Positions 2,217-59,052 of a stretch of DNA of 64,000 nt are shown in pieces. The stretch comes from Terriglobales bacterium (lineage in GTDB: Bacteria; Acidobacteriota; Terriglobia; Terriglobales; Acidobacteriaceae). The position numbers and the translations under genes are program-made. The DNA lies in NCBI GenBank assembly GCA_025936825.1, contig JAICSO010000009.1:62001-126000 (forward strand), in the 5' to 3' direction. Positions within the stretch are counted from its first letter, which is position 1. Each line of letters begins with the position of its first letter. The notes beneath the pieces are model-generated. The model was not told the DNA's origin, did not search any database, and was given only the letters and a program-made list of their open reading frames with translations.

Positions 2217-3545
2217 CTAGGGTGAAAGTGTGAAATTGACGGTTATCAAGGTGTCTACTTCTACCGGAGATCCATTCAGCATGAATGGTCTGTACTTCCA
2301 CTGTTGGACGGCATCTACCGCCGCATAGCTCAATGAGGGCGAGGGACTGTTAACAACCTTCAGGTCTTGGACGGTGCCATCCTTCCCGATTACCGCAGAG
2401 AGGGTGACCAATCCCTGAATGTGGGCTTGTTTGGCCTCTGCCGGGTATTGAGGGACAACGTCGTATGTTTTCAACCGCTGGATAACGCCTTGCGAAACTC
2501 GCACCCGTTGCGGCAACTTCTTGCCTGGGACGGGCGTGGGTTCGACTACGCCCGAACTCGGTTTGCCCGGGGGGACGACCACTGTGGGTTCCGCGGTACC
2601 GGGAGCGACAGCGGGAGGTGTGCTGGGGAGCCGATCGGGTATCGCCTTTTGCACCACCTCGCCGCTCGATAAACAAGTAGTAGCCTTTCCGTCAGACGAT
2701 GCGCGAATGTCGCCGTCTTCATCGGAACAGAAGGCGCGTTGTTCAGAATTCGCAACCGCAGGCTCCGCGACGATCTTGTAGTGGGAGGGGTCGCAGCCGG
2801 AGATAACGTAAACGTAGCCGTCTTTGCTCCCCTTGACCAGTTCAGGATCGTACAAATACGCGCCGCCACCGCGCGCCTGGCCTCCCAGCACTGACAAAGA
2901 ACAGGCGAAGTGTCCTTGCATGGCGGAGTATCGTTTCTGCGCCATGTTTACCTGTTGAATCCACATGATTGTGCGCTGTTCGTTGCGTGCTCGCTGGGAA
3001 TCTTCCATGCTCTTGAGAAAGTTTGGGTCAGCAAGCGGAACACGCACCGTCACGCTGATTTCATTCAGCCGCCATACATTGGCCTCGGTTTGCATGATGA
3101 ACGTGAAGCGTGGAATGACCGGGAGCGATTGTTCTTTTCCATTGCGGCTCAGGTGCAGTGCGAGTTCAATCTGGTCTTCATCGCCGACGAGATCATCGCG
3201 CTCAACGCTGATCTCGATCTTGTCAGGCTCGGTGCCATTCAGGTCCGGGTGCGGTTCTTCCGCGAGCAGCAAAGTGGGGCCGGTGTCGAAACTCTGAAAA
3301 TTCGTGCCGCCTGCGCGCGCCTGAGTAGCGATCGCGGAAAACTCAGACAGGTAATTCTCCCCGCCAGGGGAACTGAGCTTATTCAGCGAATGCCGGGTGA
3401 CCTCAGGAAGGTGCTTCTCCATGTGATTCGGGGCCTGGCCGAAAAACATCTCGATCAGCGCCTGGCGCGCCGTTTGAGGCGCAGCTGACTGGCCAAATAG
3501 AGAAGATGCAAGAAGGGTAATCACCAAGGCGAGGCACTGCCGCAT
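2217..3545 (-). CDS. Secreted protein with C-terminal TonB domain
   Basis: 442 residues with a cleavable signal (ALVITLLASSLFGQSA). The first about 300 residues form a region I do not recognise, with a pilin-like patch (NMAQKRYSAMQGHFACSLS) around 200. A Pro/Val-rich linker follows (about 305-345). The last about 85 residues are a TonB C-terminal domain (VVPQYPAEAKQAHIQGLVTL, then AVDAVQQWKYRPFMLNG). TonB C-termini normally contact outer-membrane receptors, but this protein lacks the N-terminal TonB anchor helix, so it is probably a stand-alone periplasmic TonB-like protein, as is common in Acidobacteriota. GGAGG five bases before ATG supports the start. Confidence 0.8.
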   Translation of the reverse strand: MRQCLALVITLLASSLFGQSAAPQTARQALIEMFFGQAPNHMEKHLPEVTRHSLNKLSSPGGENYLSEFSAIATQARAGGTNFQSFDTGPTLLLAEEPHPDLNGTEPDKIEISVERDDLVGDEDQIELALHLSRNGKEQSLPVIPRFTFIMQTEANVWRLNEISVTVRVPLADPNFLKSMEDSQRARNEQRTIMWIQQVNMAQKRYSAMQGHFACSLSVLGGQARGGGAYLYDPELVKGSKDGYVYVISGCDPSHYKIVAEPAVANSEQRAFCSDEDGDIRASSDGKATTCLSSGEVVQKAIPDRLPSTPPAVAPGTAEPTVVVPPGKPSSGVVEPTPVPGKKLPQRVRVSQGVIQRLKTYDVVPQYPAEAKQAHIQGLVTLSAVIGKDGTVQDLKVVNSPSPSLSYAAVDAVQQWKYRPFMLNGSPVEVDTLITVNFTLSP

Positions 3546-3665: not shown

Positions 3666-6600
3666 CTAAACAGCCACGGTTTCCTTCTCTTTGTCTTCGG
3701 AACTCTCCAGTTGACCTCTCCGCAGCGCGCGTTCTTTCATCATCACAAAGAACACAGGGACGAGAATCAGAACGTGAATGGTTGACGTAATCATTCCGCC
3801 TACCACCGGGGCGGCGATCGGCTTCATGACGTCAGAACCAATGCCGCTTTCCCAGAGGATTGGTGCCAAGCTGGCCAGGACTGCGGTCACCGTCATTAGC
3901 TTGGGACGTAGCCGTTGCACCGCTCCTTCGACTGCAGCTTGCTGAATGAGCTCGTTGGTCAGTTGTGAGCCGAAACGTAGGCGCTTGTCGAGAGCCTCAT
4001 GCAGATACACAACCATAACCACTCCGGTTTCAACCGCGATGCCAAACAGCGCGATGTATCCCACCCAGACCGCCACGCTGAAGTTGTAGCCAAGCCACCA
4101 CTGCAGCAGCAGACCGCCGCTGGCCGCGTACAGTGTGGGGAAGATCAGGACGAATGCTTCGGTCACGGAACGGAAAATCATATAAAGCAGCATGAAAATC
4201 GCTGCGAACACAACAGGGAGGATGATCTTCAGCCTCTCTTTGGCGCGAAGCTGAAACTCATATTCGCCGGACCATTGGTGGCTGAACCCGGTTGGGAGCT
4301 TGAGTTCGCGCGAGAGCACTTTGTTGGCTTCTCGAACGAAGCCGCCATAGTCATCCGTCTTCAGGTCGATGTACACGTAGCCGGTGAGTTGACCGCCCTC
4401 ATCACGAATCATTGCGGGACCCGTGGAGAACGAAAGATGTGCCACCGCGTTTAGCGGGATCTGCGCACCGGCAGGCGTAGCAACGAGTACGCGTCCCATT
4501 TCTTCCGGTGTGTCACGGAAATCACGCATGTAACGGACGTTGATGGGATAGCGTTCGCGTCCTTCGACGTTCTCGGCGATATTCTCGCCGCCGATGCCCG
4601 ACTCGACCGCGCGCTGTACGTCTTCAACAGTCATTCCGTAGCGCGCGGCCTGCATGCGGTCGACATCGACGTTGAGATAGAAGCCTTGCGAGACGCGCTC
4701 GGCATACACGGCGCGGGACTCGGGAAGTCGAGAGAGCAGTTGCTCAATACGGGATCCCGCTGCCTGAATGCCCTCCACCGTTCGTCCCTGAATCTTCATG
4801 CCGAGGGGCGTCTTGATCCCGGTGAGTTGCATGTCGAGACGATTTTGTACCGGCATCGTCCACGTGTTCGAAATGCCGGGGAATTGCAGCTTCGCGTCCA
4901 TCTCCGCGATCAGCTTTTCGTAAGTCATGCCGGGCCGCCATTGCTCACGCGGTTTCAGCATGATCGTGGTGTCATACATGTCGAGCGGCGCGTTGTCGGT
5001 AGAGCTGTCGGAGCGCCCAACTGTGCCGAAGACACTCTCGACCTCAGGGAAGGTGCGGATAATGCGGTCCTGCTGCTGCAAAAGTTGTGTCGCTTGCGTG
5101 ATGCCGATGCCGGGTAACGACGTCGGCATGTATAGCGAGGAGCCTTCGTACAGCGGCGGCATGAATTGACTGCCGAGGCGCAGCGCGAGCGGAATTGTGG
5201 CGGCTAGAAAAACTAGGTTCACCGCAATCGTCAGCCAGCGACGGCGAAGGGCGAATCGCAGCACGGGTAGGTAGATCGCCTGGCTAATGCGTGAAAACGG
5301 ATTCTGAGATTCCGGACGCAGTTTCCCGCTGATGAAGTAGAGCATGAGCGCAGGAACAACGGTGATTGCCAGCAAGGACGAGAACGCAACCGATAAAGTT
5401 TTGGTCCACGCCAGTGGCCGGAACATGCGGCCTTCCTGCGCTTCAAGTAGGAACACAGGGAGGAACGAGACAGCAATGATCAGTAGCGAAAAGAAAAGCG
5501 CTGGGCCAACCTGCTTGGCGGCATCGATCAGGATGCGGCGGCGCTGCTTCTCCGTGATCGGCCCAGGCGTTTCCGAAAGATGGCGGAAACCGTTCTCGAC
5601 GATCACGATGGATGCATCGATCAGCACGCCGATGGCGAGAGCAAATCCACCCAGCGACATGATGTTGCTGCTGATGTGCAGAAAGTACATCGGAATAAAT
5701 GCAGCTAAGATCGCGACCGGAAGCGTAAGGATCGGAATCAGCGCCGAGCGGAAATGAAAGAGGAAACTGATCGTCACGAAACTGACGATGACGCACTCCA
5801 GCAGAAGATCGCGTTGCAGCGTTGTAATGGAGTCGCTGATGAGACCGGAACGGTCGTAGCCGGCGTGAATCTCAACTCCGGCGGGTAGAGTCGGCGCAAT
5901 CTCCGCGACCTTAGCTTTGATTCCGTTGATGACGTTCAGTGCGTTTTCGCCAGTTCGCATCACCACGATGCCGCCAACTGCCTCGCCTTGGCCTTGCCAT
6001 TCCGCAACGCCTTCGCGAATATCGGGCCCGAAGTTCACAGTGCCCAGGTCGCGCAACAAAATAGGCGTGCCATTCTTTGCGTTGACCGAGACTTCTTCGA
6101 GATCTTTCAACGATGTGAGATATCCAAGCCCCCGCACCATGTAGCGCGCGCCGTTCATTTCCAGCACGCGTCCGCCGACCTCGTTAGTGCTGGCGCGAAC
6201 ACGTTCAATCACGGTGCTCAAGGGAATCCCGTACGCCAGCAACTTGTTGGGATCAAGTTGCACCTGATACTGCTTGACGAAGCCGCCAATGGTCGCAACC
6301 TCGGCAACGCCTGGAACCGTTTCAAGCTGGTAGCGAACCTGCCAATCCTGAAGAGATCGCAGGTCGGCGAGGCTGTGGCGGTGCGTGCGATCGATCAGCA
6401 CATACTCGAAGACCCACCCGACACCAGTTGCGTCAGGACCCAGCATGGGATGGGCGTCTGCGGGAATGCGGCTGCCGAGTCCCTGAATGTACTCGAGCAC
6501 ACGTGAACGCGCCCAGTAGAGATCGGTACCGTCCTCAAACACGACGAAGATGTACGAATCACCGAACATGGTCTGCGCACGCACAGCCTTCACCTTCGGC

Positions 6601-47534: not shown

Positions 47535-47822
47535 GTAAGTTGAGCCGACCGCGCGGTGAAATCCCGAGCGAAGCCGAGGGACCTTGCCTAATGTCAGAAG
47601 GCAGCCGGACCTATAAGTTGGGGCGATTAGCGGGCGTGAGCGAAGCGGGAGGCCGCTGCCGAAATCCCGAGCGTAGTCGAGGACCTTGCGCACTATCAGA
47701 AGGCAGCTGGACCTGTAAGTTGAGGCGATTAGCGGGCGTGAGCGAAGCGGGAGGCCGCTGCCGAAATCCCGAGCGTAGTCGAGGGACCTTGCGCAATATC
47801 AGAAGGCAGCTGGACCTGTAAG
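47535..47822. repeat. Tandem repeat, 102-bp unit
   Basis: About 2.6 copies of a 102-base unit starting TAAGTTGAGGCGATTAGCGG and running through GAAATCCCGAGCGTAGTCGA. The core GAAATCCCGAGCG recurs at 47558, 47661 and 47763. The first copy lacks about 25 bases. The gap 47433-48147 contains no other feature that I can support; open frames through the repeat are an effect of the unit length being a multiple of three. Confidence 0.75.
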
Positions 47823-48147
47823 CCGAATTCTCCCGCCACAATTGAAAACGCGCAAGTTGCTGAGTCGAAAAGGGTGCAAATTGTCAATGACGGCAATTTG
47901 GTCAGCCCTGGCAGATTCTACGTCACACCGGCGTCACAACCTCAGCGCACAGGTCTTTTTTTTATTTTTGAATGAATCCAGGGGCAAGAGATGATTCCTA
48001 GCTCATACCTTCGAAATGCGCGCACATTGCTGATCCTGAAAACGTTAGCGCATCCGATCCATCCCTCACAGGCGACCTCCGCCATCGCGTCCTGCACGAA
48101 CGGTCTTTGAGGTCTCGCACGCTCAGCCGCGTACAGCTCGGAAGCTC

Positions 48148-52471: not shown

Positions 52472-52625
52472 CGTTACTCGAGCTGCACAGAAGGTGAGCA
52501 CCAAACGCCTCCGAACGCAAATCGCTAGAATTCAAGTATGCACAACAACCGAAGCCGGCGAACGATCGCCGAGAAGCAAGCTGCCATGCGCGTGCGTTGG
52601 AATCGTCAGTAAGGTCCGGCGTTTT

Positions 52626-52949
52626 GGTCCCAACTCCTCCCAGGTGGTCCCAGTCTGGTCCCAGTGGGTGGGACGAGCTTAACTCCTGCTCTGACATTAC
52701 CTTACGCCGAACGAATGCGCCTCTGGTCCCGCTTGCGCTACATAGTGTGTGTGTACTCCTGTAGGCTGAGGAAAATACCACTCTCGAGCAAGATAGAAAG
52801 CATCCGTGCAGCAGACCTTGCGCGTGTCTACATATGTTCGCAAGTGGGACCAAATACACATTCTTGTTTGTAAGAAGAAGAGACATATAGACTTGAGTTG
52901 GTCCCAAAGGGTGGGACCAGAGCGGGACCAAGTGGGTCCAACTGGGACC
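52626..52949. repeat. Cluster of GGTCCCA/TGGGACC heptamers
   Basis: Six exact copies: GGTCCCA at 52626, 52646, 52657 and 52900; TGGGACC at 52845, 52912 and 52943 (the pair at 52900 and 52912 forms a perfect TGGTCCCA/TGGGACCA hairpin). Further near-copies at 52669, 52725 and 52924. All lie within the 486-base gap between the HEPN-like gene and the 3' end of the ATPase gene. No coding region is supported in this gap. Confidence 0.65.
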
Positions 52950-52957
52950 AAGATCGC

Positions 52958-55195
52958 TCACCCTTTATCCTCCTCATCCTCAGCCAAAACACTCGCCGGA
53001 AAATATACGACCCTTGGCCGCGAGTCGTCTGCACTTTTCCAACTTCGCGGCGCCTTCTTGAGCGTGCGGCCTGGATCAGTTTCGGTCTTCCCGCGCTCCT
53101 TCAGTTCTTGTAGAAATTCATCTTTCGTCTTCGGGAATATCCTGCCTTGCTCGCGGTACAACTGCAGCAGTCCCGTATACAGCACGTCCGGCAAACACAT
53201 CCAACTGCCGTCGCCATCCAGTTGGCCGATTTTGATTGCCCTAGGCTCGGGCGGAATACTCGTATCGATCAGCTCCTCAACGATCGTTTCTCCCCCAAAG
53301 TAAATGCGTCCGCTCAACTTGGCTGCTTTGAGCATCCGAATTGCTTCGGTGATCGGATCTTCGGTCTTCTGCACAGCATCTTGCTCGGCAGCAACTAGGT
53401 CCATCGCTTCGACGAAACGCTTCCGTAGCGCCGACGACTCGGCTTCAGTTATTGCCTTTTGCGACACAGCGCACGCCAGAAACATCTCGAATCCGACGGC
53501 CAAACTCGCTAAGTTTTCCGCAATTCTCTGGTGACGGCCTACGGCTTCGAATTCGGAACGCAGCTCAGCGATCCGTTTTTGAACGTGGGATTTGAGGTTC
53601 GGATATTGCGATGCCAGAAATTTCAAGTACACAGCGTTGGCTTGCGCGAACACTCCCGCCGCAGCGTCCTTCTGTGCAGCGCTAAGTTTGGCTTTATCTA
53701 TGGCGCCTGGAGTAAAACGACTGAAGACGGTGCGTGACGCCTTCGAATGTCCGCCTGAGCGATCTTCGCCAGTGACAAGGAGTAATGCTCGCGGAGGTCG
53801 ATCTGGTTGAGGCGTTCCGTTTCGATTGGTGCGGCCGCGCCCAGTTTGGTTCGCAACTCCGCGAACAACGTTATCAACCTGTTTGTCCTGGCGTTCTCGG
53901 TTGTTGCCTTCAGGAACGTAGTCGTCAACCAGCCAGGGCGCGTCCTTAGCCTCGTGCAGAACGCGCAGAACCGAGTTGTCGGTATCGTTCCAGTGCGACA
54001 CGTTGTCATCGGTAAAACCTTCGCCATAGTGTTGTTGTACCAACAGCAGGGTGGACGTCTTGAACGAACCAGTCAAGCCGAGCGCCCAAACTGTCAGGTT
54101 TGGCTCAGGCAAAGCTGCTCGCCAAATCGTGGCGTACAGTGGCATAGTGATCTTGTCCGGACCGAGATCGATAAATTTTAAGCTGGCGCGGATGACTTTT
54201 TTCGCGGCCTCTCCGGTTGGCGGCTCCGGCAACGCGATCTGCCGAACTTTTTGGCTTCGTGGCTCAGCTTTGATGTCGCCGCGAATCCCGCGCGACCCAA
54301 TCGCGCCATTCGCGTGCAGATATAGCCACTCACTTTCATCTTCGCCCTTCGGGACTTCAATCCATCCAGTGTGGGTGTGGACTCGCCGCTCCGGAAGGTG
54401 CTGTGCGGTAAGCTGGATAGCTACCTGAGCTGTGTGAGGACGATCCGTAAAGCGAACGGCGGCCGGATCGATCAAGTACATAGGCCATTCCATCTTGTGG
54501 AAGTCTGCGTTCTCTAGACTTTTTTGTTTGTAGTCCTTGCCTTGGAACCTGGCATCGATTTCAAAACTGATTTCCTGGCTAGCACCGTCGTCGTATACGA
54601 CCCTTCGGATCGTCGCTACCGTGAAGTTTGTGAGGCGAGACAACTCGCGGTATGACTCGTTTCCTTTTGCGTTCCAGCGCCCAAGAAAAAGGCCATCAGC
54701 GAACGCGAAGTAGCGGTCGCCGTCCGCCCCAGGGCTCGCTGCTGTCCAGAAGGCATCGATTGCTTCGCTCACATTTTTGGGACCATATTGGTCTGTGGGA
54801 AAGAGCTCCAAAGCGGAGCCGGCGCGCGCCCACCGGCGGATCGCCTCCTTGAGGGCTCCTTTTTCAGGCGGCGAGAGTGTGCGCTCTGCCTGCGAGGATT
54901 CAGCCTGCGCCGCCTCAGGGTGTAGCGCAATTTTCACCTTGGCGATGTCCTCGTAAACTTGCACGCCGCTCTCGTAGCAATCTTTGAACTCCTCGGTTAT
55001 CGTCTTTGGGAGTTTTCGTTTGTCGTAGTGGATCTGTAACAGATGTTGCACGCGCTTGAGCCGGATTTTTTCGTCACAATGCTCCGACGGCGAGTTGCCG
55101 GATTGCCGATTGCCATCGTCAGTCTGCACAGCTGGGGGATTGACATCGGCGGGATTGACTGCTGGCGTTTGGCTATCGAGCGTGGTTTGAGACAT
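52958..55195 (-). CDS. DUF927-like ATPase (helicase/primase-related) of a mobile module
   Basis: 745 residues. Walker A LGLTGSFKTSTL (about 370-380), Walker B-like PWLVDDYVPEG (about 418-428) and LLLVTGEDRSGGHSK define a P-loop ATPase of the DUF927 group, found in plasmids, phages and integrative elements beside replication genes. The first about 90 residues are low-complexity and helical. A C-terminal domain (from about 640) looks like a winged helix (FPKTKDEFLQELKERGKTET). Its ATG lies inside the upstream small gene (23-base overlap). Likely role is helicase or replication initiation of an integrated element (inference). Confidence 0.72.
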   Translation of the reverse strand: MSQTTLDSQTPAVNPADVNPPAVQTDDGNRQSGNSPSEHCDEKIRLKRVQHLLQIHYDKRKLPKTITEEFKDCYESGVQVYEDIAKVKIALHPEAAQAESSQAERTLSPPEKGALKEAIRRWARAGSALELFPTDQYGPKNVSEAIDAFWTAASPGADGDRYFAFADGLFLGRWNAKGNESYRELSRLTNFTVATIRRVVYDDGASQEISFEIDARFQGKDYKQKSLENADFHKMEWPMYLIDPAAVRFTDRPHTAQVAIQLTAQHLPERRVHTHTGWIEVPKGEDESEWLYLHANGAIGSRGIRGDIKAEPRSQKVRQIALPEPPTGEAAKKVIRASLKFIDLGPDKITMPLYATIWRAALPEPNLTVWALGLTGSFKTSTLLLVQQHYGEGFTDDNVSHWNDTDNSVLRVLHEAKDAPWLVDDYVPEGNNRERQDKQVDNVVRGVANQTGRGRTNRNGTPQPDRPPRALLLVTGEDRSGGHSKASRTVFSRFTPGAIDKAKLSAAQKDAAAGVFAQANAVYLKFLASQYPNLKSHVQKRIAELRSEFEAVGRHQRIAENLASLAVGFEMFLACAVSQKAITEAESSALRKRFVEAMDLVAAEQDAVQKTEDPITEAIRMLKAAKLSGRIYFGGETIVEELIDTSIPPEPRAIKIGQLDGDGSWMCLPDVLYTGLLQLYREQGRIFPKTKDEFLQELKERGKTETDPGRTLKKAPRSWKSADDSRPRVVYFPASVLAEDEEDKG

Positions 55196-55361
55196 AAGAG
55201 TTATCCTCTTGTTCGTTGTGTGACACTTTGAGTGTCATTTCCTTGCGGATCAGCCGTAGGTCGCCATCTGTGAATTCAAAAACAATTTTACCGAACAGCC
55301 GTTCACGCTTGGCGTCAGCCAGCAGTTCGGGCAATCGATGCGTCGAATAGAGTCTGCTCAT
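55173..55361 (-). CDS. 62-residue protein coupled to the DUF927-like gene
   Basis: ATG 55361 with AAGGAAC seven bases upstream. MSRLYSTHRLPELLADAKRE then FGKIVFEFTDGDLRLIRKEM: a short helix and beta pair, basic. Overlaps the ATPase gene by 23 bases, so translation is coupled. No family recognised; the size and place fit a copy-control or accessory replication protein. Confidence 0.55.
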   Translation of the reverse strand: MSRLYSTHRLPELLADAKRERLFGKIVFEFTDGDLRLIRKEMTLKVSHNEQEDNSYVSNHAR

Positions 55362-55380
55362 TAAACTTGTTCCTTTCGGC

Positions 55381-55441
55381 AAAAAAGAAAACCGCCTGCT
55401 CAACAGAGAGAGGTCTTCCTATCTCTCCATTCAGCAGGCGG
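55381..55441 (-). terminator. Intrinsic terminator / attenuator before the DUF927 unit
   Basis: Stem CCGCCTGCT/AGCAGGCGG (55441-55433 with 55400-55392) with an inner GAGAGA/TCTCTC stem, then TTTTCTTTTTT. The T run ends only 20 bases before the ATG of the 62-residue gene and directly before its ribosome site, which is the geometry of a transcription attenuator. Confidence 0.8.
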
Positions 55442-55740
55442 CTAACTCGCGGCCCGACGCTGGCCAAGCGTCTTAATATCCGGAACGTGTACCTTTGCCT
55501 TGCGGCGTTATTGAAGCGTCCTTGCCTTCAGCGGCCTCGGTTCCGGCGGTCTTTTCACCGAATCAAGCCTTAAATTGTTAAGCCGACCTTCAAGCCTGAA
55601 GCTGGGCTCACCTACTTAGATGCTTTCCTCAGTAAGAAAGTTTCAATGTTGCGGCTTTGCACGAGCCTGCTCGCCGCGGCTTTCTGGCCATCGGCTTATT
55701 CGGACAGCTCCGAGATTCAGACAGTCATGGCGATAATTAC
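55381..55740 (-). ncRNA. Structured leader RNA of the DUF927 unit (candidate)
   Basis: About 360 bases between a TAATTAT box near 55735 (possible -10) and a strong terminator. Stems on the minus strand include GCGGC/GCCGC with inner GAGC/CTCG (55651-55680), CTTCA/TGAAG (55588-55601), CTTAA/TTAAG just downstream, CGGT/ACCG, and GACGCT/AGCGTC (55456-55472). There is no convincing open frame. No known RNA family was recognised; RNase P, tmRNA and rRNA do not fit. It lies head-on to the GmrSD gene. Confidence 0.45.
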
Positions 55741-55920
55741 ACTGGATACGTTAGAGCGTGACAGAACGATGCGGAAGCTCGATTCACTTTGCAGCGGTTG
55801 GATTTAGGGAGCACCTTCGGTAGTACACCGGCGGTGGGACTGTGTTCCCGACGGGCGGCAAACAATGTTATTGTGGCCTCAGTTTAAACCGCGCTAGCCA
55901 AATGGGGAGGGAATGCACCG

Positions 55921-57620
55921 ATGAAGATCACTTGTTTAGAAAAAGAGGTTGGCCAGCTCCTCAGCGAAGCCTATTACAAGATTCCGAGGTTCCAGCGGCC
56001 TTACTCATGGGACCACGTCAACGTCGAAGAATTTTGGGGTGATGCAGTCGTTGAGAGTGAGAGTGACTACTTCATCGGAAATTTCGTGGTTTACGACGAT
56101 AAGGGAATACAGGGAGTTGTTGACGGTCAGCAGCGGCTTACTACGATAACTCTGCTCCTGTGTGCGCTACGAGATGTTTTTCACGAACAGGGCGAGGAGA
56201 AGCTCGCGCAGGGGCTCCACGGCCTTATTGAAAGGCCGAATATCAAGGCTGAGAAATATTACGTTCTCCAGAGCGAAACCTCATATCCCTATTTTCAGGA
56301 GCATATTCAAAAATTCTTGGGAAACCAGGGGTTCCTGCCGAGGTCGGGCCAGAGGAGGAACTTCTGAAAGATGCCTTCGACTACTTGCGAGAAAAGTTGG
56401 ATGCCACCGTTCACGGTATCAAAAGTCTTCCTAGTCTTTCCGGCCAAAAGAAGAGCGAGCGCATAAAGGAGGAGCTGTCGAAGATTAGAGATAAGGTGTT
56501 GGCTCTCAAATTGATCTTCACAGCCCTGGACAACGATGATGATGCATACATCATCTTCGAAACCTTAAACACGCGAGGGAAGGATCTCACGCTTTCTGAT
56601 CTTGTTAAGAGCCATCTTTCCCGATTAATGAAGCCTTCAAACAAAGGGGTGGACCTGGCAAAAGACAAGTGGGCCACAATCAACGAAACTTTTGAGGAAT
56701 CGCAAGCTGACCTCAGCGTCTCCACGTTCATACATCATTACTGGCTCTCGCGTTACGACTACACGACAGAAAAGAAGCTCTACAAGGCCCTGAGAAAGCA
56801 GATCAAGAAGGACAATGCAACGGCTTTTCTAGACGATTTAGTTCTTGAGAGTGGCCTCTATAGAGCGATTCATGAACCTGTATACAGGAATTGGAAAAAG
56901 GAAGAGTTTGAAATTCGGGACTCACTGGCAGCCATGAACCTTTTTCGCATAAAGCAGCAGCTGCCAATGGTGCTCGCAGTCATGCGGCATCTTGAAGACG
57001 GCACCCTTAAGATCAAACATGCAACGAATGTTCTGAAAGCAATTGAAAATTTTCATTTCGCATTTACAGCTGTCGCGTCACAACGTTCGTCTGGTGGAAT
57101 TTCCTTTATGTATGCCTCGAACGCAAGGAACCTGTATTGCTCAAAAGGCACAAAAAAAGTGTCGTTGTTAAAGCAGTTTAGAAAAAAACTCGCAAGTAGA
57201 CGCCCTCCCGTCGCGGAATTTGAGGCAAGATTTCTCGAGTTGAAGTATTCAACAGTATTCACAAAGCAGAAGCCTTTAATTAAGTACATCCTCTCCAAGA
57301 TCTACGAACGGAATTCCCCTGGCCTGGCGATCGATCCCGAAAAAATGACGATCGAACACTTGGTCCCTGAAAGCCCAACCAAAGGGCCGGTGCTTGCAGA
57401 CGAACACATTGCGTCGATCGGAAACCTGATCTTGGTCACGCCGAAGATTAATCAGAAGCTGGCAAATAGGCCGTTTAACGATAAAAAGGCAATTTTAAAG
57501 TCATGCAACGTGTGGGTCGATGATGTCATTATGAACGCACACACATGGGGAACCAACGAAATACAGAAAAGAGCCACGCTTCTTGCCCATGAGGCCTTCA
57601 ATAATGTCTGGCCACTGTGA
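55921..57620 (+). pseudogene. GmrSD-type (DUF262/DUF1524) type IV restriction gene with -1 frame break
   Basis: Type IV enzymes of this group cut modified (glucosylated or otherwise hypermodified) phage DNA, using a DUF262 NTPase-like domain and a DUF1524 HNH nuclease. The first frame from ATG 55921 (GGGAGGG nine bases upstream) has YYKIPRFQRPYSW and VVDGQQRLTTITLL and ends at 56367. The -1 frame runs on (VPAEVGPEEELLKDAFDYL to the stop at 57620) with the HNH part MTIEHLVPESPTKG and GNLILVTPKINQKL. One backward step at GGGAAAC (56319-56325) restores a 566-residue protein. Whether this is decay, error or programmed slippage is open. Confidence 0.8.
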
Positions 57621-58056: not shown

Positions 58057-59052
58057 TCACTGAAGCACTCCTGAAGTCATAACGTGACCGAACAAATGGA
58101 TCTCCGCAAGTTCGTACGCGCGAATGCTCACGCTATCCAACGCCGGATCAAAATCGCTCGCTTGTAGAAGCGCCCGTTTGGCTGCCTTGAAGTCAGTGTA
58201 AGCCTCCACGCCGTCCTCTTCGACGCGTTGTTTGTAGCGCTCCAGCAGAAGATTCGAGATCCGCTCGACTTCGGCCTCTAAATTGTTCGATGGCTGGCTA
58301 AGCGGTGTCTCGGAAACTGGAATGTCGTACAGCTCATCCGGCACTGAGGACGCGATGTCTGGGAGCAATGGAACGCCGGTCTCGTCGCGCGGCCGACGTT
58401 TCAGTGCCTGCTTGCCTTCGAACGGGTTGCCGACGATCTCGCGCAGTGCATGTGCTTGCCCAGCGAGCGTCGCCAGCTTCAGCGCTTCGAGTTCGGCCTG
58501 TAGCACCTGGGAGAGCGCGTCAGCACCCGAGGTCCACTTTAGCTTCTCTGCGCCAGTCTCCAGAGCTAGGTCTATGACCGCGCTGATGTGATGCCGGCTT
58601 GCCTGTCGCGCCGCATTTATGGCGATGTGTTCAGAAGTTGCGAAGCAGCACAGCTGTGCAGATGCACCTGGAATGTGCCGTGACAATGCCCTTGCTGCAC
58701 CGGCACCGCCGCCGCTCGCGCCCTCCCGAGCAAGGGCCACGTCTTGAGCCGATGACCTGCCGCGCGCGAACGCTTCGGCTGAGTCGACCACGCGCACCGT
58801 GGCCGGATGAACCTTTAGAACTTTCAGACAGGCTCGAGCACACCAGCATGCAAACAGGCGGAGACTCGCGTCTGAGTCGTTCGGGATCCGACCGAGCTGC
58901 CAGGCCGATTCGAGCGTCCACAGCATCCAATCGCTGCGCTCGCACAGATCCCAGGCGTGCTCCAAACTCCTGTGCAGCTTCAGGAACCCAATTACCTCTC
59001 CGCGATTGATGCCGGTCTCGATGGACGCCTCCGAAGGGCGACAGTGGAACAT
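58057..59052 (-). CDS. Protein of unknown function with Cys/Ala-rich helical domain
   Basis: 331 residues, soluble. Residues about 35-100 (WTLESAWQLGRI, SLRLFACWCARACLKVLKVH, VVDSAEAFARGRSSA) match a pattern common in proteins of unknown function of Planctomycetota and Acidobacteriota (LRLFACxCxR, then VExAExxAxG). The middle is Ala/Gly-rich, the end helical (NLEAEVERISNLLLERYKQR). Lies convergent with the GmrSD gene and divergent from the restriction operon. Confidence 0.55.
   Translation of the reverse strand: MFHCRPSEASIETGINRGEVIGFLKLHRSLEHAWDLCERSDWMLWTLESAWQLGRIPNDSDASLRLFACWCARACLKVLKVHPATVRVVDSAEAFARGRSSAQDVALAREGASGGGAGAARALSRHIPGASAQLCCFATSEHIAINAARQASRHHISAVIDLALETGAEKLKWTSGADALSQVLQAELEALKLATLAGQAHALREIVGNPFEGKQALKRRPRDETGVPLLPDIASSVPDELYDIPVSETPLSQPSNNLEAEVERISNLLLERYKQRVEEDGVEAYTDFKAAKRALLQASDFDPALDSVSIRAYELAEIHLFGHVMTSGVLQ

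What the first reader, a model, noticed from the sequence alone, without database searches (positions are those of the whole stretch)
55381..55740. Structured, terminator-ended leader RNA controlling a DUF927/62-residue gene pair
A non-coding minus-strand region has at least five good stems and ends in a strong intrinsic terminator. The T run stops 20 bases before the first ATG of the coupled gene pair. The geometry is that of an attenuator and recalls copy-number control of plasmid rep genes by antisense-induced termination. I recognise no known RNA family.
Basis: partly seen in the sequence, partly recalled or inferred. Interest (0 to 1): 0.72.

Follow-up and report, generated by a model that had tools for sequence, protein, structure and literature searches.

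The report
Terminator-gated leader of island replication operon
A very strong transcription stop signal sits 19 bases in front of the replication genes of a mobile DNA island in an Acidobacteriota genome, so these genes are probably switched on only when transcription reads through it; the rest of the supposed structured RNA is not clearly more folded than chance.

Summary
The terminator is real and exceptional: a 50-nt hairpin (55392-55441, minus strand, about -36 kcal/mol, z -7.5) followed by TTTTCTTTTTT, ending 19 nt before the ATG of the 62-codon ORF. It is the strongest found in the window plus the next 20 kb. The rest of the leader is no more structured than shuffled DNA, except one 90-nt hairpin chosen after folding. 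It matches no Rfam family and no relative was found, so covariation is untestable. The large gene is a replication-initiator helicase: its model best matches SCCmec Cch and SaPIBov1 Rep; its six aligned relatives hit DUF927, it does not itself. A TGGGACCA iteron array lies directly downstream, as in SaPI origins, so the leader is probably not the origin. The operon lies in a 21-kb integrase island in the 3' end of rnpB, loaded with defence genes. Best reading: attenuator or safety stop on the replication operon; there is no room for a promoter behind the terminator, and one acidobacterial relative has the same geometry. Not shown: promoter, transcript, antisense RNA, antiterminator. A plain insulating terminator or stand-alone sRNA remains possible.

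The parts
55392..55441 (-). intrinsic terminator hairpin of the leader
   Evidence: 55391-55443 folds at -36.1 kcal/mol, z -7.5; arms 55422-55441 and 55392-55411, 85% complementary; strongest of 12 sites in 84 kb
55381..55391 (-). T tract of the terminator (TTTTCTTTTTT)
   Evidence: sequence
55381..55920 (-). leader without a long ORF, bounded upstream by the divergent GmrSD start codon at 55921; the 5' end of any transcript is unknown
   Evidence: short ORFs: none begins with ATG behind an SD-like site
55551..55640 (-). 90-nt irregular hairpin, the only other locally stable element found in the leader (weak evidence)
   Evidence: z -3.1 on the minus strand, -0.24 on the plus strand; chosen after folding; a scan of the leader is not significant
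55173..55361 (-). 62-codon ORF, first ORF of the operon, AAAGGA 9 nt before its ATG; no relative found
   Evidence: single-sequence model pLDDT 68, no PDB match at E <= 0.001
52958..55195 (-). replication-initiator helicase (SCCmec Cch / SaPIBov1 Rep-like, DUF927-related), 745 aa
   Evidence: model pLDDT 77; best PDB matches 5dgk and 8tch, E 1.8e-14 to 2.8e-13; relatives hit PF06048
52625..52950 (.). iteron array (TGGGACCA: 7 exact and 4 one-mismatch copies, both orientations) directly after the helicase stop: probable replication origin
   Evidence: 7 of the 9 exact copies in the window; whole-window expectation 1.44; GC 0.32 at 52850-52899
47804..47831 (+). left attachment site, identical over 28 bp to the 3' end of rnpB at G000:C91:130849-130876
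55921..57620 (+). divergent GmrSD-type (DUF262) restriction gene, split into two ORFs in different frames; its start bounds the leader

Best explanation
The region is the 5' leader of the replication operon (62-codon ORF plus Cch/SaPI-Rep-like helicase) of an integrative island, and its last element is an intrinsic terminator that works as an off-switch or attenuator. SHOWN by sequence or model: terminator, 19-nt spacing, overlapping ORFs, an initiator-type helicase, a downstream iteron array, an island with integrase and rnpB attachment sites. INFERRED: transcription starts in the roughly 480 nt upstream of the hairpin; most transcripts end near 55381 while the island is integrated; read-through, caused by an unknown signal (antiterminator fold, protein, antisense RNA or altered polymerase), makes the initiator, which acts on the iterons and lets the excised island replicate. 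The reason for preferring attenuation to plain insulation: 19 nt cannot hold a promoter plus ribosome-binding site, and no promoter-like site overlaps the hairpin in my scan, so the first ORF seems reachable only through the terminator.
For: Terminator strength and uniqueness. 19 nt between T tract and ATG. No co-oriented gene whose end it could obviously serve: the nearest minus-strand ORF of more than 110 aa upstream is 58057-59052, beyond the plus-strand GmrSD gene. The gene is a replication initiator by fold with SaPI-type downstream iterons; of DUF927 loci with enough sequence, 19 of 44 have four or more copies of one 8-mer in the 400 nt downstream, 0 of 45 in the 400 nt upstream, and 15 of 980 random control windows do. 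One of 48 other non-redundant loci, L032 (Acidobacteria AH-259-O06), has the same geometry: terminator z -6.6, T tract ending 20 nt before the ATG of a 57-aa HTH_17 gene (weak AlpA match), then a DUF3854 ORF and the helicase ORF, with an ORF of unknown kind diverging upstream; a leader segment there is folded too (2950-3049, z -4.5; 2850-2949, z -1.6).
Against: No sigma-70-like promoter on the minus strand upstream of the terminator (other promoter types are not covered). No expression data. No leader relatives, hence no covariation. At the density of strong hairpin-plus-T sites (34 in 514 kb, both strands), about 0.1 of 48 loci would show the L032 geometry within 60 nt by chance, so the recurrence is suggestive only. 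One further locus (L067, site at 5179) has a strong hairpin with a poor T run some 95 nt before the helicase start. Across loci, strongly folded windows are no commoner upstream of the helicase gene (3.7% with z < -3) than downstream (3.5%). The antiterminator candidates (5' arm with 55450-55462) are ordinary alternative pairings. A weak promoter-like site inside the 62-codon ORF (55315-55285) could serve the helicase alone.
Confidence: 0.5

Rival explanations
1. Insulating terminator or stand-alone small RNA: the terminator ends a separate short minus-strand RNA, or stray antisense transcripts from the GmrSD side, and so keeps them out of the replication genes. It is not regulated; the operon is silent or is driven by a promoter inside the 62-codon ORF.
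For: A strong terminator needs no regulation; a weak promoter-like site lies at 55315-55285; the rest of the leader is not structured above chance; the divergent GmrSD gene makes divergent or antisense transcription plausible.
Against: The 62-codon ORF with its good ribosome-binding site would then have no visible promoter; an insulator need not stop 19-20 nt before a start codon, yet L032 shows nearly the same spacing.
Confidence: 0.3
2. Antisense-RNA attenuation of the pIP501/pT181 type, or P4 CI-type RNA immunity: a short counter-transcript pairs with the leader and forces termination, so that copy number or immunity is set by RNA. This is a special case of the best explanation.
For: pIP501 has a 329-bp leader before repR whose transcript is attenuated by antisense RNAIII (PMC4981023, passages seen); P4 stops its replication operon by CI RNA (PMC4825925 and PMC10111431, passages seen). 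The leader here is up to 540 nt and precedes an initiator gene. Two plus-strand promoter-like sites at 55710-55743 (8 of 12 matches). pT181 is recalled, not looked up.
Against: Those sites are at background level (3 found in the region, both strands, 2.4 expected); no cop-like gene upstream, only GmrSD; no Rfam match to such a family even at E <= 10.
Confidence: 0.13
3. The leader is the replication origin of the island and its hairpins are DNA structures used in initiation.
For: It lies next to an initiator gene.
Against: No 8-mer occurs three times in 55362-55920, while TGGGACCA iterons lie directly downstream of the gene, as in SaPIs (PMC7581432, passages seen); family-wide 19 of 44 loci downstream against 0 of 45 in the 400 nt upstream. 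One locus (L062) has five copies of an 8-mer between 500 and 100 nt upstream.
Confidence: 0.03

Closest known systems
SCCmec Cch / SaPIBov1 Rep replication modules (DUF927 helicases)
   Same: Helicase fold (5dgk, 8tch best matches); a small ORF directly upstream of the helicase gene, as LP1413 is in the Cch operon (PMC7581432 passages); iterons directly downstream as in SaPIs; integrative element.
   Different: Acidobacteriota host; inserted in rnpB; the small ORF has no found relative; terminator-ended leader. The passages seen mention no such leader and say that it is not known what activates the SCC genes.
Leader attenuation of plasmid rep genes by antisense RNA (pIP501 repR)
   Same: Long untranslated leader with transcription termination before an initiator gene (PMC4981023 passages).
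   Different: No cop-like gene, no antisense promoter above background, leader up to 540 nt against 329 bp, integrative element instead of plasmid.
P4 CI/seqA immunity RNA (Rfam C4, isrK)
   Same: Satellite-type replication operon kept off by transcription termination (PMC4825925 and PMC10111431 passages).
   Different: No Rfam match; P4 uses RNA pairing at CI and seqA sites in eta, whereas here an intrinsic terminator sits 19 nt before the first ORF.

Membership tests
Intrinsic-terminator attenuator (general kind) | strong intrinsic terminator directly ahead of the first gene | tested here: met
   (terminator and spacing; transcript start unknown)
Intrinsic-terminator attenuator (general kind) | promoter upstream of the terminator | tested here: inconclusive
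   no sigma-70-like site on the minus strand upstream; other promoter types not covered
Intrinsic-terminator attenuator (general kind) | mutually exclusive antiterminator fold | tested here: inconclusive
   alternative pairing of the 5' arm with 55450-55462; no covariation possible
pIP501/pT181-type antisense attenuation | convergent antisense RNA gene within the leader | tested here: inconclusive
   two 8-of-12 plus-strand sites at background level
pIP501-type module | small cop repressor gene upstream of the leader | tested here: not met
   the upstream gene is GmrSD
P4 CI / C4 / isrK RNAs | match to the Rfam models | tested here: not met
   cmscan of 55180-56000 at E <= 10: only mir-3122 and sR49, far below gathering
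DUF927 / Cch / SaPIBov1-Rep initiator module | helicase fold | tested here: met
   predicted model against PDB: 5dgk E 1.8e-14, 8tch E 2.3e-13
DUF927 / Cch / SaPIBov1-Rep initiator module | Pfam DUF927 match of the protein itself | tested here: not met
   no match at E <= 0.1; the six relatives aligned with it match
DUF927 / Cch / SaPIBov1-Rep initiator module | iteron origin directly downstream of the helicase gene | tested here: met
   (sequence only; origin activity not tested)
Integrative island | tyrosine integrase and flanking direct repeats at a conserved gene | tested here: met

The most novel reading that the evidence does not exclude
DUF927/SaPI-Rep-like integrative islands of Acidobacteriota carry a so far undescribed RNA switch: a leader closed by a strong terminator about 20 nt before the first gene of the replication operon, which senses excision or a helper signal and gates replication by read-through.
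Probability: 0.17. Interest if true: 0.65.

Novelty: new member of a known kind. Interest (0 to 1): 0.4.

Why it matters
[quoted passage not shown] A terminator placed directly before the replication operon of a related island is a concrete, testable off-switch. Independently, the find adds a rnpB-inserted, defence-loaded island with a SaPI-like rep-iteron module in Acidobacteriota, and shows downstream iteron-like arrays in 19 of 44 DUF927 loci against 15 of 980 control windows.

Tried and rejected
Rfam at gathering and at E <= 10: no family. Leader DNA against phages, plasmids, related genomes and phylum genomes: only matches of 20-38 nt, judged chance (of the four non-self loci, three were looked at and the fourth, L003). 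My first impression that part of the leader resembles the end of 23S rRNA was from memory and got no support from cmscan. Covariance model of the 90-nt hairpin, built from two copies of the one sequence: only itself and its own reverse strand. blastn of the leader against the DUF927 loci: nothing better than E 0.04. Leader peptide: short ORFs exist, two of them with an SD-like stretch (TTG, 42 codons, 55865-55737; GTG, 16 codons, 55558-55508), none starting with ATG behind one; not pursued. Leader as origin: rejected. Enrichment of folded windows upstream of helicase genes: rejected by the downstream control. Relatives of the 62-codon ORF: none (1 of 396 genomes, itself); a resemblance to DUF2292 was recalled and not supported by Pfam at E <= 10. 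Close relatives of L032's operon to test covariation there: none close enough (1 of 119 other genomes at 36% identity; none). A profile search of PDB sequences with A1 found nothing at E <= 0.01 and a single-sequence search only 8tch at E 0.37; the fold search did find it.

Rows dropped before counts: L018, L021 and L065 as duplicates of L032, L041 and L064 (49 loci left, window included). One search then had windows for 47 of them (L027 and L037 have no upstream DNA), for 45. One search reported 3 of 45 loci with upstream arrays; two of these (L027, L037) were an indexing fault of my script, so I recounted (44 loci with 400 nt downstream, 45 with 400 nt upstream). An earlier count gave 36 strong terminators; the output lists 34, used here.

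Full report
WHAT IS THERE. On the minus strand the order is: divergent GmrSD start (55921), about 480 nt without a long ORF, a hairpin (55441-55392), TTTTCTTTTTT (55391-55381), 19 nt with AAAGGA, ATG at 55361 of a 62-codon ORF, and a 745-codon gene (55195-52958) overlapping it by 23 nt. The hairpin folds at -36.1 kcal/mol, z -7.5, 0 of 200 shuffles. In the window and the adjoining 20 kb, both strands, it is first of 12 hairpin-plus-T sites at -18 kcal/mol or better; the second is -22.8. The tool's simple scan missed it.

IS THE LEADER STRUCTURED? Not demonstrably. z is -1.36 for 550 nt (7 of 100 shuffles), +0.3 for 55441-55860 and -0.8 for 55441-55740; the lowest z of 90-nt windows is reached by 34 of 48 shuffled leaders, the mean z by 5 of 48. 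A 90-nt hairpin at 55551-55640 has z -3.1 with a strand bias, but it was selected after folding.

KNOWN RNA? No. cmscan of the window at gathering: 0; of 55180-56000 at E <= 10: two matches far below gathering. No leader relatives: phages and plasmids none; 5 of 149 other related genomes with matches of 20-38 nt; 4 of 395 other phylum genomes with matches of 28-35 nt, three of them inside long open frames; covariance model only itself and its reverse strand in 55 sources and 61 genomes. Covariation therefore cannot be tested.

WHAT THE GENE IS. The protein has no Pfam match at E <= 0.1 and only a weak PHROG match to a DNA primase/helicase (E 0.028). Relatives occur in 9 of 395 other phylum genomes (some cut by contig ends), 31 loci of genome contigs (partly the same genomes), 12 viral contigs, 42 plasmid and 2 phage records; none in 199 other close relatives. 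In a 7-member alignment the six relatives match DUF927. Invariant residues fit a Walker A (G373, G376, K379) and an acidic pair D424-D425 (the motif names are recalled). A model built on 24 sequences (pLDDT 77; residues 1-139 below 50) has SCCmec Cch (5dgk, E 1.8e-14) and SaPIBov1 Rep (8tch, E 2.3e-13) as best PDB matches. Cch contains DUF927 and its operon also encodes the small ssDNA-binding protein LP1413, upstream of it (PMC7581432, passages seen). The 62-codon ORF holds that position but has no detectable relative, and its model (pLDDT 68) has no significant match.

ORIGIN. Directly after the helicase stop lie 7 exact and 4 one-mismatch copies of TGGGACCA in both orientations (52625-52950), 7 of the window's 9 exact copies against 1.44 expected for the whole window, with a GC dip to 0.32 at 52850-52899. 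SaPI origins lie just downstream of rep and consist of iterons (PMC7581432, passages seen). In 19 of 44 DUF927 loci (window included) one 8-mer occurs at least four times in the 400 nt downstream, against 0 of 45 in the 400 nt upstream and 15 of 980 control windows (which corrects). The leader is therefore unlikely to be the origin.

ELEMENT. A 28-bp direct repeat at 47804-47831 and G000:C91:130849-130876 is the 3' end of rnpB (RF00010, 291.8 bits). A tyrosine integrase and a small ORF before it lie just inside the right repeat. The island is about 21.0 kb. In a same-genus genome (L096) a copy of the 102-bp repeat that flanks the left end directly follows rnpB, as expected of an empty site; this is suggestive, not proof, since the repeat itself resembles the rnpB end. 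The integrase has no match at E <= 1e-30 in 179 other related genomes. Cargo seen: HEPN AbiU2-like, DUF6988, GmrSD, HsdM/S/R and Mrr_cat genes. The phylum is Acidobacteriota: G449, 'same phylum', has the contig length of the record titled Acidobacteria bacterium AH-259-O06, and the two loci give identical coordinates.

HOW IT WORKS. With 19 nt between T tract and start codon there is no room for a promoter, and my scan found none overlapping the hairpin; the first ORF seems reachable only through the terminator. That argues for a gate. No promoter is visible upstream either, so the start site is unproven. One of 48 other loci, L032, shows the same layout: terminator z -6.6, T tract 20 nt before the ATG of a 57-aa HTH_17 gene, then a DUF3854 ORF and the helicase ORF, and a leader segment of z -4.5. 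L067 has a strong hairpin with a poor T run about 95 nt before the helicase start. By density of such sites (34 in 514 kb, both strands) about 0.1 L032-like cases would be expected by chance. Folded windows are no commoner upstream of these helicase genes (3.7% z < -3) than downstream (3.5%); loci with a window of z < -5 number 12 of 47 upstream and 9 of 45 downstream, the window's locus included. A family-wide structured leader is not supported; a terminator gate in these two islands is plausible.

COMPARISON. It works like known terminator control of replication genes: pIP501 repR (329-bp leader, antisense RNAIII, CopR; PMC4981023 passages) and P4 CI (PMC4825925 and PMC10111431 passages). 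Membership in either is not shown: no Rfam match, no cop-like gene, antisense promoters at background. Searches of the paper library for DUF927 (14 papers listed), P4 CI RNA, rnpB or RNase P RNA attachment, integrative/helicase/attenuation/satellite terms and pIP501 listed no title describing such a leader; only those listings and the passages named were seen.

VERDICT. Terminator real and striking; gate likely (0.5); multi-stem regulatory RNA unproven; antisense control speculative.

Noticed in passing
window 52625-52950: Iteron array TGGGACCA directly downstream of the helicase gene; probable replication origin of the island.
   Followed up: yes
window 47804 to G000:C91:130876: About 21-kb integrative island in the 3' end of rnpB, 28-bp direct repeats, tyrosine integrase, loaded with restriction and HEPN-type genes.
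   Followed up: partly
window 47558-47822: 102-bp tandem repeat (2.6 copies) just left of and into the left attachment site; a copy directly follows rnpB in a same-genus genome (L096).
   Followed up: partly
window 55921-57620: GmrSD (DUF262) gene split into two ORFs in different frames, each with part of the N-terminal domain.
   Followed up: no
window 58057-59052 (-): 331-aa ORF inside the island without Pfam or NCBIfam match; weak PHROG match to an unknown family (E 0.003).
   Followed up: no
L032 2840-3130: Second terminator-ended leader, better folded than the window's (2950-3049 z -4.5), before an HTH_17 gene and a DUF927 helicase; no match in the phage or plasmid collections.
   Followed up: partly
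L032 3303-6047: The DUF3854 ORF and the helicase ORF lie in one frame separated by a stop codon, so the gene looks broken (or is read through) in this genome.
   Followed up: no
L022, L052, L055, L058, L051 downstream of the helicase gene: Iteron-like arrays of 8 to 14 copies of one 8-mer, a different 8-mer in each, within 400 nt downstream.
   Followed up: partly
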